Shown: positions 22,490 to 32,345 of the stretch, piece after piece | How the letters are laid out: the number at the start of each line of letters is the position of its first letter | Position numbering within the stretch: the stretch's first letter is position 1 | Source of the DNA: Blastocatellia bacterium | GTDB taxonomy: Bacteria; Acidobacteriota; Blastocatellia; Pyrinomonadales; Pyrinomonadaceae | Length of the DNA stretch: 64,000 nucleotides | Direction of reading: 5' to 3' | NCBI GenBank assembly: GCA_003168335.1 | Contig: PMSM01000010.1 | Span: 272,001 to 336,000 of the forward strand | Made by a program: the position numbers and the translations under genes | The notes under the pieces: generated by a model | Databases searched by the model: none | Told to the model about the DNA's origin: nothing | The model's input: only the letters and a program-made list of their open reading frames with translations

Positions 22490-22901
22490 ACCGCGATGAT
22501 AAGGAGAAGGTTAGGGGTGGGTCAATTGAGAGCAGTCAAGCAAACCAGCGGATGCCTTGCGCCCCACAAAACAAGAAAGGCCGCTGAGGGGTTTTCCCCG
22601 CCGCCTGCCGCTGCTCCAGCCTATCCGTCTTTTCGGGATACTCAAGTAAAGAAACAATGCGCAGAGTCCTCCAGAAGTTTCTTGAGGGACCCTGATCTTA
22701 GAGCCTGACCGACCCCTGTCATTCTGACTGACTAAGCTTGCAGACTGACCTCGCTGACTGCTCACTCCGCCCTTTAAATTGCAAAAACAGGCCGACAAAC
22801 GCGGATCGGAGCTCTGGCACGACCATTGTTAAGTGAAGAGCGCCAGCACCAGCGAGTGCTGCGACTGAAGACCAAGTCAAGGCAGTTTCTTGGAGTTTCA
22901 A
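22490..22901. other. Spacer between divergent nnr and subtilase genes
   Basis: About 410 bases that must hold the promoters of two divergent genes. I see no clear sigma-70 pair, no tRNA and none of the window's repeat families. A loose CTGACTGACT-like run occurs near 22728-22760. Confidence 0.4.
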
Positions 22902-25439
22902 ATGAGCAGAGAAAAAAGAGTGCGGACACGGTTAGGTTGGCGGTGGCTCACAGCCCTGGGGCTGGCCCTGTCACTCCTGACCGGCATCGTGGTGAGCGAC
23001 AGCGCTAAAGCCCAAAATATCGCGAAGCCCGCTAACGCTTCGGCCACGAGCGCCCTCAGCAAGTACGCCTGGGACCTTACCGCGGCCGCAGAACGGGGTC
23101 GCTTTGATTCGTTGACCGAGCGGCGCGAGGAAACCAACCGGGCCATTGAAATACTTTCCAGTCCTCATAAGAACAATCCGGTGGTCCTGAGTGATTCGCC
23201 AGCCGTCCGCGATCTCGTGGCCTCAGGCGTGGCGCGGCGGATCGCCAAAGGTGATGTACCGGAAGCCCTGCAGGGCAAGCGCCTGTTTAAATTGAATCTT
23301 GAGGCGTTGTTCCACGATTCGAAAACTGCCGGCGAACTCGTAAATAACATTTCGGCAATTCTCTCTGAAGTTTCGCAATCCGATTCGAAAATCATTCTCC
23401 TCGTCGATCCCCTCCAATCTTTGATGGGTCCATCCGCAGCGTTTGATGGCGCCGCTTCCGCGATGTTGCGCGATGCAATTAAGAACGGCGACGTTCAGTG
23501 CTTCGGCGCCTCAACCGACATCGCGTTCCAGGAAAACGTTGCGAGCGACGAATCATTAGCGCCGCTTTTTGCCGGCGTCCAGATGCAGGAAGTTGCTGAC
23601 GCAAGCCAGCAGACTGAAGATAGTGCCCAGGCGAACGCCACGAAAACAAACGCTGAAAAGTTCGTTGGCGACAAGGTCTCGGCGGATTTGCGTGAGTTGG
23701 TCGATAGCCGCAACGCTCCGGCTCGCGTCAAGGCAATCCTGCAAGTCAACGATACCAACAGCCAGGCTCTCCGGGCCCGGCTGGCAGAGTACGGCGTCAA
23801 CGTTGAGGCGCAGATGCCGCAGTTTGGAACTCTGGCCCTGGATCTCCCCACGAAAGCTATTGAGAAGATCGCCAATAGCAGCAGTACCAACTACCTTTCG
23901 CTCGACCGCCCGATCAATGGTCTCGGTCACGTGGAAGAAACCACGGGCGATGAGGCGATGTTGGCGCAGCCTGGTAACAGCCTTCTTGATGGCAGCGCGA
24001 TCGGCGTCGCGATTCTCGATTCAGGTGTTTCGACCAAACAGAAATCGCTGGCCGGTCGGATCGTTTACAGCCGGGACTTTACCGGCGAAGGCACCACCGA
24101 GGATCCGTACGGTCACGGAACCTTCGTAGCATCGATGGTCGCCGGGAAGCACGGCTCGTACGGCGGGATTGCCACGGGCGCGAACCTCGTAAACTTCCGC
24201 GTACTGAATTCACAAGGCACGGGAACGCTTTCGGCACTGCTGGGCGCGTTGGACGCGGTGATGTCCAACCGCACGACCTACAACATTCGCGTAGTTAATA
24301 TGAGCCTGGGAACGACGGCGGTTGATTCGTACAAGAACGACCCGCTCTGCCGCGCCGTCCGGCGCCTGGTTGATGCGGGTATCGTGGTGGTTGCCGCGGC
24401 CGGAAACGACGGGAAAGATCTTCTGCATCCAAAGCTCTACGGCCGCATTCATTCCCCCGGCAACGAGCCTTCGGCGATCACAGTTGGCGCCTCGAATACG
24501 TTTGGTACGGATGCCCGCCATGATGACGGTGTCACCACCTACAGCTCGCGTGGACCGACCCGCAGTTACTGGAAGGACTTGAAAGGTGTCAAGCATTACG
24601 ACAACCTCCTCAAGCCCGACATGGTCGCTCCAGGTAACAAGATCATTGGCGCTGCCGCACCCGGCAATGCCCTGCTGCAACTAAATCCAGGCCTGCTCGT
24701 TGGCAACGCAACCACCGCGAATGGCAAGGGCAATATGCGGCTGAGCGGTACTTCGGTCTCGGCCCCGATTGTCGCCGGCGCGGTCGCGGTACTGTTGGAA
24801 GCCAACCCCAGCCTCTCGCCAAATCTGGTAAAAATGATTCTCATGTACACAGCGCAGCCGCTGGCGAAGTTCAATACGCTCGAACAGGGCGCTGGTGAAC
24901 TGAACCTGGAAGGCGCCGTGCGTTTGGCGAAACTCGTGCGGACTGATTTGTCTTCATCGACAAGAGTGGGTTCGCCCCTTTTGACTTCCGCGCCCCCGAC
25001 ACCGCAGAGCACAATCGCCGGCCAGACTTTCTCATGGTCTCAGGGCGTGCTGTTCAAATACGACTGGGCGAAAGGCCCGGAACTGGTCACCAGGTACCAG
25101 GGAGTCTACGGCCTTGGCGTGCTGTTAAGCGACGGGGTCTTGCTTAGCGATGGCGTACTTGTCGCCGACACCAAACAGCTCTCTAGTGGTGTGCTGGTAA
25201 GCGACAACATCATGTTGAGCAACGGCATCACCATGGGCGACGGAGTCGTCCTGATGAGCAACGGCGTCCTGCTTGCTGACGGAGTCCTTGTCTCCGATGG
25301 CGTGCTCATCGCTGACGGTGTATTAGTCAGCGACGGCGTGTTAGTCGCAGACGGCGTACTTGTCTCCGATGGAGTTCTGGTCGCGGATTCCTCGCGCGAA
25401 GCCACCGGCGACAACACAATCTGCATGCCGGAAGAATAA
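22902..25439 (+). CDS. Exported S8 subtilisin-like protease with dead ClpB-type AAA+ domain and DGVLVSD repeats
   Basis: An 845-aa protein starting at ATG 22902. Residues 1-38 are a signal peptide (ALGLALSLLTGIVVSDSAKA). Residues about 54-232 align in order with the first AAA+ domain of ClpB/ClpC: YAWDLTAAAERGRFD (Clp: YARDLTELARQGKLD), KNNPVVLSDSPAVRD in place of KNNPVLIGEPGVGKT, GDVPEALQGKRLFKL, GELVNNISAILSE, IILLVDPLQSLMG, DVQCFGASTD. Walker A, the Walker B Glu and the arginine fingers are all lost. Residues about 270-345 resemble a subtilase propeptide. The catalytic triad is intact: D373 (AILDSGV), H405 (GHGTFVASMVAG), S618 (SGTSVSAP), with oxyanion N502. Residues 738-830 are repeats of about 7 residues such as DGVLVSDGVLVADGVLV, likely a beta-solenoid. 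A strong terminator follows. Confidence 0.9.
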   Translation: MSREKRVRTRLGWRWLTALGLALSLLTGIVVSDSAKAQNIAKPANASATSALSKYAWDLTAAAERGRFDSLTERREETNRAIEILSSPHKNNPVVLSDSPAVRDLVASGVARRIAKGDVPEALQGKRLFKLNLEALFHDSKTAGELVNNISAILSEVSQSDSKIILLVDPLQSLMGPSAAFDGAASAMLRDAIKNGDVQCFGASTDIAFQENVASDESLAPLFAGVQMQEVADASQQTEDSAQANATKTNAEKFVGDKVSADLRELVDSRNAPARVKAILQVNDTNSQALRARLAEYGVNVEAQMPQFGTLALDLPTKAIEKIANSSSTNYLSLDRPINGLGHVEETTGDEAMLAQPGNSLLDGSAIGVAILDSGVSTKQKSLAGRIVYSRDFTGEGTTEDPYGHGTFVASMVAGKHGSYGGIATGANLVNFRVLNSQGTGTLSALLGALDAVMSNRTTYNIRVVNMSLGTTAVDSYKNDPLCRAVRRLVDAGIVVVAAAGNDGKDLLHPKLYGRIHSPGNEPSAITVGASNTFGTDARHDDGVTTYSSRGPTRSYWKDLKGVKHYDNLLKPDMVAPGNKIIGAAAPGNALLQLNPGLLVGNATTANGKGNMRLSGTSVSAPIVAGAVAVLLEANPSLSPNLVKMILMYTAQPLAKFNTLEQGAGELNLEGAVRLAKLVRTDLSSSTRVGSPLLTSAPPTPQSTIAGQTFSWSQGVLFKYDWAKGPELVTRYQGVYGLGVLLSDGVLLSDGVLVADTKQLSSGVLVSDNIMLSNGITMGDGVVLMSNGVLLADGVLVSDGVLIADGVLVSDGVLVADGVLVSDGVLVADSSREATGDNTICMPEE

Positions 25440-27323: not shown

Positions 27324-28688
27324 TTAGAGACGGTAGTCCTTGATCTTGGTCAAGAGCGTTTTGTAACTGACTCCCAGAGTTTCGGCGGCGCGAGTTTTAT
27401 TGCCGTCAGTTTCAGCCAGCGCATCGGCGATCTTCTGTCGCTCAACCAACGCCACGGCCCGTTCGGCCGCTTCGCCCAGCGTTCCGGAAGTATCAAAGCC
27501 AAAACTTTTCGGCGAGCGCACCTCGTCCACGCCGAAGCCCAGATCGCGGGGTTCAAGACTCGTGGCGTCCGCCAGGATGCAAGCGCGTTCGATCGCGTTC
27601 TCGAGTTCGCGCACATTGCCCGGCCAGCGGTGCGCGCGCATGGCCGACACGCTGGCATCGCTGAGCGTAGCATCACGACCTCGCAATTCATTTCCGATTT
27701 GCGCCGCGAAATGCCGCCCGAGTAAAACTACGTCGTCGCCGCGTTCGCGCAACGGCGGAATGTCGATCGGAAAAACCGCGAGGCGAAAAAAGAGATCGCC
27801 GCGGAACTCGCCTTTATTCACCGCGCCGCGCAGGTCCTTGTTCGTGGCCGCAACGACGCGGACGTCAACCGGCACCGGCCCGCGACCACCGATGCGATCG
27901 ACCGACTTCTCTTCAATGGCGCGCAACAGTTTGCCCTGAACGGCCAGCGGCAATTCCCCAATCTCATCAAGGAACACCGTGCCGCCGGAAGCCAATTCAA
28001 ATTTGCCCAGCCGGCGATCACCCGCACCGGTGAAGGCGCCGCGCTCGTGTCCGAACAACTCGTTTTCGATCAGCGTTTCCGGAATGGCCGCGCAGTTGAT
28101 GGCGACGAAAGGTTTGTCGCGCCGATTCGAGAGATGATGAACTGCGCGCGCGAAGAGTTCTTTCCCGGTTCCCGATTCGCCCAGCAGCAACACGGTCGCC
28201 TCAGTCGGCGCGACGCGCTGCGTCTCAGCCACGACCCGCTTGATTGCTTCTGATTCACCGATAATGCGCGGAAAGCCGTAACGCTTCGACCACTCTTCGC
28301 GCAGCAGAATATTTTCTGTGCGCAGCCTTGATTGCTCCAGAGCGCGCCCGACCAGCAACAGCAAATGATTCGAATCCACCGGCTTCTGGAGAAAGTCCTG
28401 GGCGCCGTCTTTCATCGCCTGCACGGCTTCATCAACCGAGCCGTACGCCGTCATCACGATCACGGGCACGTCGCCGTCCGCGGCCCGCGCCGCGCGCAGC
28501 ACGTCCAGTCCCGAACCATTCGGCATGCGCAGATCAGTCAGCACGACTTTGTGAGGAACGCGACCTATTTCATTTATGGCTTCGCGCGCATCGACGGCTT
28601 CGGTAACTGAATAGCCGGCATGCTCCAGCGTTAGCCGCAGCACGCGACGCAGGCTCTCTTTGTCTTCGACAAGAAGGATGTCAGGCAT
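27324..28688 (-). CDS. Sigma-54-dependent response regulator, NtrC type
   Basis: A 454-aa transcription activator. Receiver domain at 1-115 ([14 protein letters not shown], phospho-acceptor Asp in [13 protein letters not shown], Lys in FLQKPVDS), AAA+ domain at about 140-370 with Walker [20 protein letters not shown], the sigma-54 contact loop GAFTGA, and R-finger region [14 protein letters not shown], then a C-terminal Fis-type helix-turn-helix ([20 protein letters not shown]). Its likely partner is the hybrid histidine kinase at 30162-32072. The two are separated by an AT-rich two-gene module. Target genes unknown; murJ follows directly. Confidence 0.93.
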
Positions 28689-29031
28689 GAATCATGAAGA
28701 GTTCAGATTTCAAACTTGAAATTCGAGATCTGAAAGCACTCGCTCATCATTCACTGCGATGCGCGAGAGTGTCAAGCACGAGGGCTGGCAGTTCGCTTGC
28801 AGGATCGGCGCATGCCAACGGGGCGTTAGCCCGACCGTAAGGGAGGGCTCACGGGTTAGCGACGAAACTTTGGAGTGCGCCGACCTGTCGGCGCTTTGTT
28901 CTTCCGCGACTCGGTGATATTCGCTCAAACTTCCGTTAGTTGCTCACGAAAAGGAGAAATCGATCATGCCGTAAGATCGCTAGAATTTTGGAGCTTAGGC
29001 GACCAACACAACTTTACCTCACTACCTGGGT
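28689..29031. other. Spacer with palindromic repeat
   Basis: About 340 bases between the regulator gene and the AT-rich module. It holds a copy of the AGCCCTCCC palindrome (28825-28850, inverted) and a TTTCAGATTTCAAA-like piece at about 28702-28733. No gene is seen. Confidence 0.5.
28825..28850. repeat. AGCCCTCCC palindromic repeat, inverted copy
   Basis: Reads GCCCGACCGTAAGGGAGGGC, the reverse complement of the core at 11866-11894. Confidence 0.65.
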
Positions 29032-29649
29032 TTAGGGTGGGTTAACCTTTAGCCATCCCACTACGAGAATTGAGTAGTCATTAAACTCCAGCTTTCTCGG
29101 ATTTAAACCTTGGTCCTTGCACCGAGCGGGAAGTTGAACGCGAAATTGGGCATAGCGTCTAACCATTTTTTCAGGGCCGGGAAACACTACGTCTTTGTAA
29201 TCGGGGGAGTTGCGAAGCCAATTGCGAATCCGGTGAATTATTTCGTCTATATCATTCTGATGGGCGCGAATATCTTGTCCCGCAATGTCCGAGCAGAAAA
29301 CTTGAAATCGATAATCAACCTTGTCTAAGACCAGCGCTCTCTTTGATCTGTCGCTCCTGTCACCAAACCGCTTGGCACCTAACCAAAGCCCAAGTTCCAG
29401 AGGCATGTTGAAACGGGGTAGGCGGTTCTTGGAGTCCAGGGTCACGCGAGATATGTCATGTATGCCGTACTTACTCTCCGAAATCAACTGATAAATCTTC
29501 TCTACTCGGACGCCCGATGAATCTTCATCTTCCCGTGCACAACGCGCGACGAATCCACAATCATAAATGGCGAAAACGGCTGCCTCAAGCAGCCGCTTGT
29601 ACGTCCTATCAAATGGAACGTTAAGGAAAACAGAATTCTTGTATGCCAC
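29032..29649 (-). CDS. TIR/deoxyribosyltransferase-like putative nucleotide-binding protein
   Basis: A 205-aa protein. The sequence opens NSVFLNVPFDRTYKRLLEAA and has CGFVARCARED, KIYQLISESKYGIHDISR and then RFNMPLELGLWLGAKRFG with E85. This order (strand one, Arg-rich loop, S-x-YGIHDIS, then P-x-ELG) resembles TIR and nucleoside 2-deoxyribosyltransferase folds, where the Glu in an xELG motif cleaves a glycosidic bond of NAD or a nucleoside. The family is common in bacteria but, as far as I know, uncharacterised. The C-terminal half (SDIAGQDIRAH, IRNWLR, FNDYSILVVGWL) is its own conserved region. It starts with GTG. Base composition is clearly more AT-rich than the neighbours. It may act in defence; that is inference. 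Confidence 0.65.
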   Translation of the reverse strand: MAYKNSVFLNVPFDRTYKRLLEAAVFAIYDCGFVARCAREDEDSSGVRVEKIYQLISESKYGIHDISRVTLDSKNRLPRFNMPLELGLWLGAKRFGDRSDRSKRALVLDKVDYRFQVFCSDIAGQDIRAHQNDIDEIIHRIRNWLRNSPDYKDVVFPGPEKMVRRYAQFRVQLPARCKDQGLNPRKLEFNDYSILVVGWLKVNPP

Positions 29650-29668
29650 CGCGCTTTTGATTTTTTAG

Positions 29669-29914
29669 TTATCGCTTACCAACGGCCTTGGTCTTAGATT
29701 TGGACCTGATGCTGTCGCTAACCTTAGTTGCTGTTTTTGACGCCTGAATTCTTTGCGACAACAACGAGCCCACTGGCCTGTCACTTCTTGAGACAATAAA
29801 AGACCCGGCTTTCGCATTTCTACGAACCACTCTGGCAGAATTAATGGAGTCTTTCAGGCTGATGCTACCGCAAACAGGTGGTGTTTTGACGGACCTATAT
29901 TTCATGGAAGGCAT
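29669..29914 (-). CDS. Small basic protein upstream of the TIR-like gene
   Basis: An 81-aa protein rich in Lys, Arg and Ser (MPSMKYRSVKTPPVCGSISL; tail SKSKTKAVGKR). It lies 19 bases before the TIR-like gene on the same strand, with the same AT-rich composition, so the two probably form a unit. Starts at TTG 29941, ATG 29914 or ATG 29905 are possible; I choose 29914. No domain is recognised. Its size, charge and position suggest an accessory or regulator (nucleic-acid or partner binding), without proof. Confidence 0.5.
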   Translation of the reverse strand: MPSMKYRSVKTPPVCGSISLKDSINSARVVRRNAKAGSFIVSRSDRPVGSLLSQRIQASKTATKVSDSIRSKSKTKAVGKR

Positions 29915-30161
29915 TGTGAACAGTGAATTTTGGTTGGTCAAGAACGTTGTTCACTTCGAGGAGACCTGTTGATGCCGGACCTCCGCTCATTTAAGGAAAT
30001 TCTTATCATCGCCTGATCTAATAAACGAACTTAACCGAACTAGAGCGAAACCCTTTGGCAAAGGCCCTGCCAAGCTTGAAGTGTCGTTCAGTCTATCAGG
30101 CCGGTCAAGTAAAGACTTTTATCAAGGCCGCCCCCGATTAGCGGGAGCCTAAGACGAGGGG

Positions 30162-32072
30162 TTAGACCGTCACAGTTTCGCGTGGCTCGGGCTGGCTGGC
30201 CAGAATCGCGTGCGCTCTCGCGAGCACATCGGCGAGCGCGTATGGCTTGCGAATGACTTCATCAATGCGGGCTCGTTTGTAATCTTCTTCGGCGATCATT
30301 TCGGCGTAGCCGGTGGCGATAATCACGGGCATCCCGGGGCGGAACTCTTTGACCCAGCGCGCCACGTGAAGGCCGCTTAATTCCGGCAGGCCGAGATCGC
30401 AAACCATCAGATCGAATTCGCGTTTGTCCAAAAACTTGAGCGCTTCGGCGCCCGTCGTGGCCTCGGTAACGTCGTGGCCCTCGGCGCGGAAAGCGTCATT
30501 CAAAAGCACTCGCACTTTCTCTTCGTCTTCGACCACCAGCACGCGCGCCGACTTTGTTCCGTTGCCTTGCGCCAGGGGAGTAGTCGCAACCGGCGAACTG
30601 GCTTCGTGCAGCGGCAGAATAATTTCGAAGCGAGTTCCCTTGCCCGGCTCGCTAATTACGTTGATATCTCCGCGATGGTTTTCGATGATTCCATGCGAGG
30701 CGGAAAGCCCAAGACCTGTGCCGCGTTCGCCCTTGGTAGTGTAGAACGGCTCGAATATTCGCGCGATGACTTCCGCCGGCATGCCGGCCCCGGTGTCAGA
30801 TATCCAAAAGCGCGCCGTCTTCCCTTCCACTCTCGTGCCCGCTTCGATCGTTCCGCCCTGTGGCATCGCGTCGACCGCGTTGAAGATCAGGTTGAGGGCA
30901 ACTTCGCGCAACTCCGCTGAATCCCCGAGCGTGAATGCCGGTCCGGGAGCGTCAAGACGCACCTCGATACTGCCGGTCCTTTCGGCCGATGCGGCCTGCC
31001 ATTTGGGCCGCGCAATTTCCACACTGGAAGAGACGAGCTCGCTCAAATCCACCGGCACGGGATGCCTCGTCGTTTCGCGTCGAGAAAAGTCGAGCAAGCG
31101 CCGCAAGGTTTGTGAACAGTCGCCCACTGCTTGCGTGATGACTCCGAGACTCTTCTTGTTTCCTTCATCGGCGGTGCTGCGCATCAACAGCAGCTGCGCG
31201 CGTCCCTGAATCACCGTCAGGGAATTGTTAAGGTTGTGTGCCACGCCGGCCGCCAACTCGCCCAAAGCGCGCAGCTTGTCAGATCGAGCGGCGCGGGCCT
31301 GGGCCAGTTTCTTCTCGGTGATGTCGCTCATGAAGACCATCACGCCGGTGATGCTCCCATCACGCCACAAAGGCGAAGTGTGCGCATCCATGCACCGCAC
31401 GCGGCCGTCAGTGCAAATAGTCTGCACTTCGAATTGTTTCTCTTCACCGCCCAACGTGCATTGGACCGCGGCGTTCGCTTCTTCCTCAGACTCGGCCGCG
31501 ACGATCATGCTGAAGTCCTGCCCGAGCAGAACTGAACGGGTGAATCCACCGTCGACTTCGGCGCGCTGGTTCATCCAGGTGAAGCGTCGATCAGTGTCGA
31601 GCGTGTAAATCTCGTCAGGCGCGAGATCGGCCAGGCTCGCGAGAAAGGCGCGGTTCTTACTCCCCTCTTCTTCCGCCTCACGCAGCTCAGAGATGTCCCG
31701 GACGATGACGATGCAACCGGTCGCCGACTCTTGCTGCTGATCCTGGCTTTGAGGGACAACGCGGACCAGCAATGGCCGCTGCGTTTTGTTGCCGGACGGG
31801 AGTTCTACTTCAACTTCGGCGCCGCTCGAGATGGCGCGATCAACCATGCAGCCCGTGCCTTCTCCCCAAAGCATATCGCAGCACCGACGCCCCGCGAGGA
31901 ACGAACGGGCTGCCTGCTCGAGAGATTCTCCGGCGCGGTTGATTTTCTTCAGTCGCTTGTCCGGACCGAAGATATAGACAGCATCCGGTAAGGTATCGAT
32001 GGTCGCCTCCCACATGCGATCGGCGGCCATCAGCGAGTTGCAGAGTTTGATGTGTGCGTCAGCAGAACTCAT
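30162..32072 (-). CDS. Hybrid PAS sensor histidine kinase
   Basis: A 636-aa cytoplasmic-looking kinase with no clear membrane helix. Order: PAS domain (about 20-130; TIDTLPDAVYIFGPDKRLKK, with Cys residues in GRRCCDMLWGEGTGCM), second PAS (about 145-255), dimerisation/phosphoacceptor helix with H in GVAHNLNNSLTVIQGRAQLL, catalytic ATPase with NLIFNAVDAMPQGG and DTGAGMPAEVI plus GTGLGLSASHGI, and a C-terminal receiver (VLVVEDEEKVRVLL, Asp in VCDLGLPELSG, Lys in RKPYAL). I start at ATG 32072. The Cys cluster in the first PAS might hold a redox or metal sensor. Its probable output is the NtrC-type regulator at 27324-28688. Confidence 0.92.
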   Translation of the reverse strand: MSSADAHIKLCNSLMAADRMWEATIDTLPDAVYIFGPDKRLKKINRAGESLEQAARSFLAGRRCCDMLWGEGTGCMVDRAISSGAEVEVELPSGNKTQRPLLVRVVPQSQDQQQESATGCIVIVRDISELREAEEEGSKNRAFLASLADLAPDEIYTLDTDRRFTWMNQRAEVDGGFTRSVLLGQDFSMIVAAESEEEANAAVQCTLGGEEKQFEVQTICTDGRVRCMDAHTSPLWRDGSITGVMVFMSDITEKKLAQARAARSDKLRALGELAAGVAHNLNNSLTVIQGRAQLLLMRSTADEGNKKSLGVITQAVGDCSQTLRRLLDFSRRETTRHPVPVDLSELVSSSVEIARPKWQAASAERTGSIEVRLDAPGPAFTLGDSAELREVALNLIFNAVDAMPQGGTIEAGTRVEGKTARFWISDTGAGMPAEVIARIFEPFYTTKGERGTGLGLSASHGIIENHRGDINVISEPGKGTRFEIILPLHEASSPVATTPLAQGNGTKSARVLVVEDEEKVRVLLNDAFRAEGHDVTEATTGAEALKFLDKREFDLMVCDLGLPELSGLHVARWVKEFRPGMPVIIATGYAEMIAEEDYKRARIDEVIRKPYALADVLARAHAILASQPEPRETVTV

Positions 32073-32345
32073 GTTCAAATGTGCGGCATTTATGGACGTT
32101 TGAGCCTCAATCTTCGCGGTCTACGGCACAGGACCCGCAGTCCTGACTCCCTGCGCGAGGGGCAAGCCTTATGCCAGTGCGGTTGAAATCAGTTTCAGTC
32201 GAAAGCTGGGAAGAATGGATGAATTCGCGGCCCGGTCGGTGACAGAAACCGGCAGACTCGTTCAGCCTGACAGTTCACCATGACACTTTATCTTTTTGAC
32301 TGACAGTTTGTCTGGAGGTAAGCCGCGGCGGATTGCGGGCTACTG

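What the first reader, a model, noticed from the sequence alone, without database searches (positions are those of the whole stretch)
29032..29941. AT-rich two-gene module with a TIR-like protein, between two-component genes
A small basic protein (81-90 aa) and a 205-aa protein with TIR/deoxyribosyltransferase-like motifs (NVPFD, YGIHDIS, NMPLELG) lie 19 bases apart, in sequence clearly poorer in GC than the flanks. They separate a hybrid histidine kinase from its probable NtrC-type partner, as if the pair had been inserted there. The conserved Glu in the ELG motif is where TIR NADases and nucleotide-binding effectors have their catalytic residue. The pair could be an uncharacterised NAD- or nucleotide-targeting defence or toxin-antitoxin unit.
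Basis: partly seen in the sequence, partly recalled or inferred. Interest (0 to 1): 0.7.

Follow-up and report, generated by a model that had tools for sequence, protein, structure and literature searches.

The report
Inserted TIR-like gene and docking partner
A small two-gene cassette, inserted between a sensor kinase and its regulator, encodes a TIR-fold protein of a widespread but unnamed family together with a short basic partner that accompanies such proteins across many bacterial phyla, probably a self-contained NAD- or nucleotide-cleaving immunity or toxin-antitoxin unit.

Summary
A 205-aa gene (T, 29032-29649, minus strand) and a small basic gene (S, about 29669-29905/29914) sit in a ~1.4 kb AT-rich insert. 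Two congeners lack the insert and have kinase and regulator 70-175 nt apart. T has no match in Pfam, NCBIfam, PADLOC or PHROGs, but its AlphaFold2 model (pLDDT 91) matches TIR domains and deoxyribosyltransferase-fold N-glycosidases, and Glu85 is invariant among 21 aligned relatives. At least 586 relatives exist in species-representative genomes, patchily spread, some on plasmids. A small partner adjoins T in about 96 of 100 loci and in 14 of 14 plasmid and viral loci examined afterwards. Most partners share a ~25-residue motif, which window S carries (best of 923 frames). In Poribacteria the motif protein lies downstream of T and is fused to DUF2188, GIY-YIG-like, large unknown or, once, CD-NTase domains. 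A tethered S-T model gives the motif high confidence, consistent with docking. Best reading: a mobile T effector, likely cleaving NAD+ or a nucleotide, controlled by S through a docking motif. Enzymatic activity, toxicity and phage defence are inferred, not shown. The defence-island link is only partial.

The parts
29032..29649 (-). T: TIR-like protein, 205 aa, of an unnamed family; probable effector
   Evidence: ORF; family; model and fold
29395..29397 (-). codon of Glu85 in the NMPLELG motif, invariant among 21 relatives; predicted catalytic residue (inferred)
   Evidence: sub-threshold Pfam match to CAP12/Pycsar TIR over this stretch in a relative (residues 73-122 on profile 63-112 of 119)
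29669..29914 (-). S: small basic partner, 78 aa (ATG 29905) or 81 aa (ATG 29914); the TTG start at 29941 is less likely
   Evidence: net charge
29825..29905 (-). partner (docking) motif MKYRSVKTPPVCGSISLKDSINSARVV of S
   Evidence: first of 923 window frames with profiles not built from it: E 6e-6 and 1.4e-4; E about 1 with the general profile
28790..30161 (.). approximate extent of the inserted stretch; exact ends not resolved
   Evidence: empty sites in L131 and L132; GC drop; the end beyond T contains a dispersed host repeat
28746..28775 (-). promoter-like site of the regulator gene, kept downstream of the insert and conserved in the empty sites
30162..32078 (-). flanking hybrid histidine kinase (not part of the cassette)
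27324..28688 (-). flanking NtrC-type response regulator (not part of the cassette)

Best explanation
S and T form a mobile two-gene immunity or toxin-antitoxin-like cassette. Shown: T has a TIR/deoxyribosyltransferase fold with an invariant Glu; T is accompanied nearly everywhere by a small, mostly basic partner with a recurring ~25-residue motif; the pair is an insert here. Inferred: T is an N-glycosidase of NAD+ or another nucleotide using Glu85, active when clustered. Inferred: S binds T through the motif and keeps it inactive or positions it, while its variable part (basic tail here; DUF2188, GIY-YIG-like, CD-NTase or large domains elsewhere) senses or recruits the trigger. Inferred: triggering, for example by phage, releases T to deplete the nucleotide and stop the cell. 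Whether S is mainly an antitoxin or an adaptor/sensor is undecided; I lean to adaptor, because the motif is grafted onto domains of quite different kinds.
For: Fold: model pLDDT 90.8, pTM 0.89; Foldseek best matches are TIR domains and 2'-deoxyribosyltransferases; VIA Z 11.6 with SPARTA TIR-APAZ, 10.8 with AbTir, 10.7 with SfSTING, 11.5 with DNPH1. Invariant F8 N10 D65 S67 R79 N81 E85 G87 S120 D121 H130. Sub-threshold Pfam CAP12-PCTIR TIR in 3 of 21 members. Partner: small ORF upstream in nearly all loci; a motif profile from half of the loci recovers the other half, and its strong hits elsewhere are ORFs directly downstream of T in Poribacteria; 34 of 42 genome-wide motif hits in 29 genomes adjoin T; 14 of 14 later plasmid and viral loci have the upstream small ORF. 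Fusions: DncV-like CD-NTase PF21654 3e-10, DUF2188, GIY-YIG. Partner type follows the T tree (13 changes against 40 shuffled). Tethered S-T model: motif residues 1-30 at pLDDT 81-96 with the linker under 50. Mobility: empty sites, patchy distribution, plasmids.
Against: No activity data. T lies below Pfam's threshold for any TIR family. Foldseek E-values are modest (best 5e-4). N-glycosidases of the DNPH1/MilB type match as well as TIRs, so the substrate is open. The window's own S scores poorly with the general motif profile (E about 1). Neighbours are mostly housekeeping genes. Eight of 42 motif hits have no T next to them. The tethered model shows confidence only; the contact site could not be seen, and parts of T had lower confidence there than in T alone.
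Confidence: 0.6

Rival explanations
1. Plain toxin-antitoxin pair: S is an antitoxin that masks T's active site and represses the operon with its basic part; the unit persists by addiction, and defence is incidental.
For: Two-gene order with the small gene first in most loci and a median gap of 19 nt to the T match; basic small proteins; HTH-like partners in one clade; plasmid carriage; no other constant gene.
Against: Motif fused to a CD-NTase, a GIY-YIG-like domain and ~400-600-aa proteins, unusual for an antitoxin; gene order reversed in Poribacteria; motif proteins without T beside other genes such as a DprA-like one.
Confidence: 0.3
2. T is not a suicide effector but a housekeeping-type nucleotide N-glycosidase or base-salvage/sanitising enzyme of the DNPH1/MilB/deoxyribosyltransferase kind, with S as a stabilising subunit.
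For: DNPH1, MilB and BcmB match the model as well as TIR domains.
Against: Patchy distribution and insertion, plasmid carriage, variable partner domains including a CD-NTase, and N-x-x-x-ELG plus SD-x-x-G motifs that fit CAP12-type TIRs.
Confidence: 0.12
3. T is a catalytically dead, scaffold-type TIR that assembles with S and passes a signal, for example to the neighbouring two-component system.
For: Lies between kinase and regulator; some TIR domains act only by assembly (established knowledge).
Against: The Glu is invariant across the aligned family; neighbours differ from locus to locus; the regulator keeps its own conserved promoter-like site.
Confidence: 0.08

Closest known systems
CAP12/Pycsar TIR domains (PF10137; e.g. 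SfSTING TIR)
   Same: TIR fold; ELG Glu and SD-x-x-G stretch; weak Pfam match in 3 of 21 relatives; structural match
   Different: Below Pfam's threshold; no STING/cyclic-nucleotide-binding domain; an extra C-terminal helical part; partnered with S
DUF4062 / Swarozyc TIR-like NADases (PMC13174449)
   Same: Another TIR-like family outside the standard TIR models with a conserved Glu
   Different: No DUF4062 match for T; Swarozyc is activated by the phage portal, and the parts of that paper I read mention no S-like partner
SPARTA TIR-APAZ
   Same: Highest VIA Z (11.6) for the TIR part
   Different: No APAZ domain or Argonaute partner next to the pair in the window
DNPH1 / MilB / nucleoside 2'-deoxyribosyltransferases
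   Same: Same fold class, ELG Glu (fold; motif from established knowledge)
   Different: Sequence identity only 11-18%; those are not known as two-gene mobile units
Sofic-AS1 (PMC12249575)
   Same: Defence effector with a small neighbouring protein that counteracts it
   Different: Fic AMPylase instead of a TIR fold; AS1 lies downstream and is not described as modular

Membership tests
TIR NADases | TIR fold | tested here: met
   best structural matches are TIR domains, tied with deoxyribosyltransferase-fold enzymes
TIR NADases | conserved catalytic Glu | tested here: met
   Glu85 invariant in 21 of 21; structural superposition of the residue itself could not be inspected
TIR NADases | sequence match above a curated TIR model threshold | tested here: not met
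   best PF10137 E 0.014; 15.7 bits against a 24.7 cut-off in one relative
TIR NADases | NAD+ hydrolysis | not testable with these tools
   needs biochemistry
Type II-like toxin-antitoxin module | small gene adjoining and co-inherited with the toxin-like gene | tested here: met
Type II-like toxin-antitoxin module | neutralisation of T by S | not testable with these tools
   needs expression tests
CBASS | CD-NTase encoded with the effector | tested here: not met
   Window neighbours are a kinase and a regulator; one CD-NTase fusion, in Poribacteria L041 only
Known defence system in PADLOC 2.0 | match to a model | tested here: not met
   best E 0.067 (T) and 0.014 (S), not meaningful
DUF4062 / Swarozyc | DUF4062 domain | tested here: not met
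   No such Pfam match in T or 20 relatives

The most novel reading that the evidence does not exclude
A short docking motif couples one TIR-like effector family to interchangeable recognition modules (basic tail, DUF2188, GIY-YIG-like, CD-NTase, large unknown domains), giving a plug-in immune system spread over many phyla that the defence catalogue used here does not contain.
Probability: 0.35. Interest if true: 0.78.

Novelty: new variant of a known kind. Interest (0 to 1): 0.62.

Why it matters
The T family has at least 586 relatives in species-representative genomes, yet no Pfam, NCBIfam, PADLOC or PHROG model matched it. If it acts as proposed, it adds a widespread TIR-like effector family with a modular partner, suggests a role for some DUF2188 proteins (partners of a TIR-like effector), and offers a compact two-gene unit for asking how TIR enzymes are kept silent and switched on.

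Tried and rejected
Sequence searches of T and S against Pfam, PADLOC, NCBIfam and PHROGs, and of T against PDB sequences, gave nothing significant. S alone finds no relatives by plain sequence search in 199 genomes; its kinship shows only through position and motif. No T in phage records and only 9 loci in 2.9 million viral contigs, so it is not a typical phage gene. A search for repeats around the insert found nothing convincing as terminal repeats or target duplication; the sequence beyond T holds a dispersed host repeat. PADLOC/Pfam scans of 144 neighbouring ORFs gave scattered defence hits (AriA, AbiLi, pAgo, capH, SLFN/AlbA) but mostly ordinary genes, with no control set. A direct PADLOC look at ten chosen neighbours found only one match. 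Literature text searches found no paper with the T motifs; DUF2188 papers were unrelated.

Full report
Observation. The two ORFs lie where reported, on the minus strand: S then T, 19 nt apart. GC falls to 47-48% across them against 56-62% in the flanks. Upstream is a hybrid histidine kinase, downstream an NtrC-type regulator.

Insertion. Orthologues of the kinase (77-78% identical) in congeners G440 and G435 are followed after about 175 and 70 nt by the orthologous regulator (85-87%), with the regulator's TTGACA-type promoter-like site conserved. In the window the gap is 1473 nt. A third congener, G415, has different sequence after the kinase, so the site may accept inserts repeatedly. Of seven genomes of the genus only two carry T; in G435 the best copy is broken into two frames and lies elsewhere. 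In the phylum 22 of 396 genomes have T. T occurs on 17 plasmid records of rhizobia and sphingomonads. The exact ends of the insert were not resolved; no convincing target duplication was seen.

T family. No curated model matches T. Twenty-one relatives align with invariant F8 N10 D65 S67 R79 N81 M82 P83 E85 L86 G87 S120 D121 H130. The AlphaFold2 model is confident (pLDDT 90.8, pTM 0.89). Structural matches are TIR domains and deoxyribosyltransferase-fold N-glycosidases (Foldseek best E 5e-4; VIA Z up to 11.6; viral library best hit annotated as a CAP12/Pycsar TIR). Three relatives touch Pfam's CAP12-PCTIR TIR model below threshold, in the one inspected over the ELG and SD-G stretch. The fold is therefore well supported; the substrate is not fixed by it.

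S partner. In the first 27 loci almost every T gene has a small ORF ending within about 60 nt upstream; the same holds in most of the 80 genome loci. Three kinds appear: an HTH-like kind with one T clade, DUF2188 proteins, and short basic proteins with a motif of the form R-x-(I/V)-K-x-P-x-K-x-G-(S/T)-(V/I)-(S/T)-x4-I-x2-A-V-x2-V. A profile from odd-numbered loci recovers even-numbered ones, and all its strong hits outside the upstream position are ORFs directly downstream of T in Poribacteria. With a loose 10-bit cut, 66 of 104 loci are recognised by the profile; by hand labels 96 of 100 have a partner. A genome-wide search of 29 genomes found 42 motif hits, 34 within 500 nt of T on the same strand. 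By my count sixteen of the 42 were used to build the profile, so 18 of 26 others adjoin T; the genomes were chosen because they have T. Fourteen plasmid and viral loci examined afterwards all have a small ORF about 5-26 nt upstream. Partner kind is clustered on the T tree (13 changes, 40 in shuffles).

The window's S. With the general profile it is not significant. With a profile of 16 partners chosen as likely kin, it ranks first of 923 frames (E 6e-6, next 0.6). Because that choice was mine, I repeated it with only the four nearest loci on the T tree, and S again ranks first (E 1.4e-4, next 0.2). So S belongs to the partner group, in a divergent branch that agrees with T's place on the tree.

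Modularity. In Poribacteria the motif is N-terminal to a DUF2188 domain, a GIY-YIG-like domain, a DARTGRF-type tail, ~400-600-aa unknown proteins, and in L041 a DncV-like CD-NTase (PF21654 3e-10, PF18144 4e-7). Motif proteins without T lie next to a DprA/SLOG-like gene, a ParA-like gene, a HEPN-like gene or a DNA methylase-like gene (my reading of the sequences). This looks like an adaptor with interchangeable second domains more than a simple antitoxin.

Docking test. In L046 S and T share a frame, so reading its stop as a residue gives a tethered pair. With 28 aligned rows (16 of them paired) the model gives the motif (residues 1-30) pLDDT 81-96, including an irregular segment, while the linker is under 50. 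Confident irregular structure in a short basic peptide is what docking would give, but a helix alone can score high and I could not see coordinates. This is support, not proof.

Neighbours. On a Sphingomonas plasmid S-T precedes a restriction endonuclease with an integrase and AbiEii nearby; a Rhizobium copy precedes a RecB-like nuclease. Across 144 neighbouring ORFs there are scattered defence hits, most other neighbours being ordinary, without a control. The defence-island argument is therefore weak.

Mechanism. TIR enzymes are activated by oligomerisation (stated in PMC13174449). The most economical reading is that T cleaves NAD+ or a nucleotide with Glu85 and that S, bound through the motif, controls it. 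Established here: fold, invariant Glu, partner, motif, mobility. Inferred: activity, substrate, sign of control by S, trigger, benefit.

Novelty. No paper in the library contains the T motifs, and the nearest published analogue found, DUF4062/Swarozyc (PMC13174449), is a different TIR-like family. The library lacks most subscription papers, so an earlier description cannot be excluded.

Noticed in passing
window 28790-28915: A dispersed, partly palindromic repeat (GCGCCGACAGGTCGGCGCACTCCAAAG and a second unit) with 57 matches in the genome, just beyond T.
   Followed up: partly
L136:1-490 (congener G415): A different sequence follows the orthologous kinase at the same site, so this junction may be a repeated insertion site.
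   Followed up: no
L041:8646-9920: A CD-NTase carrying the T-partner motif at its N-terminus, directly downstream of a T gene and near a large DNA methylase-like gene.
   Followed up: partly
L143, L147, L155, L169: Motif proteins without T beside DprA/SLOG-like, ParA-like, HEPN-like or methylase-like genes in Poribacteria.
   Followed up: partly
L190, L191 (G435:C182): A T copy in a congener is split between two frames, apparently decayed.
   Followed up: no
window 22890-25439: Subtilisin-like protein with a C-terminal run of near-identical GVLVSDGVLVADG repeats.
   Followed up: no
L074:8739-9764: A protein whose start resembles DUF4062 TIR-like NADases (YQVFVSSTYADLQQER) lies directly downstream of a T gene.
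   Followed up: no
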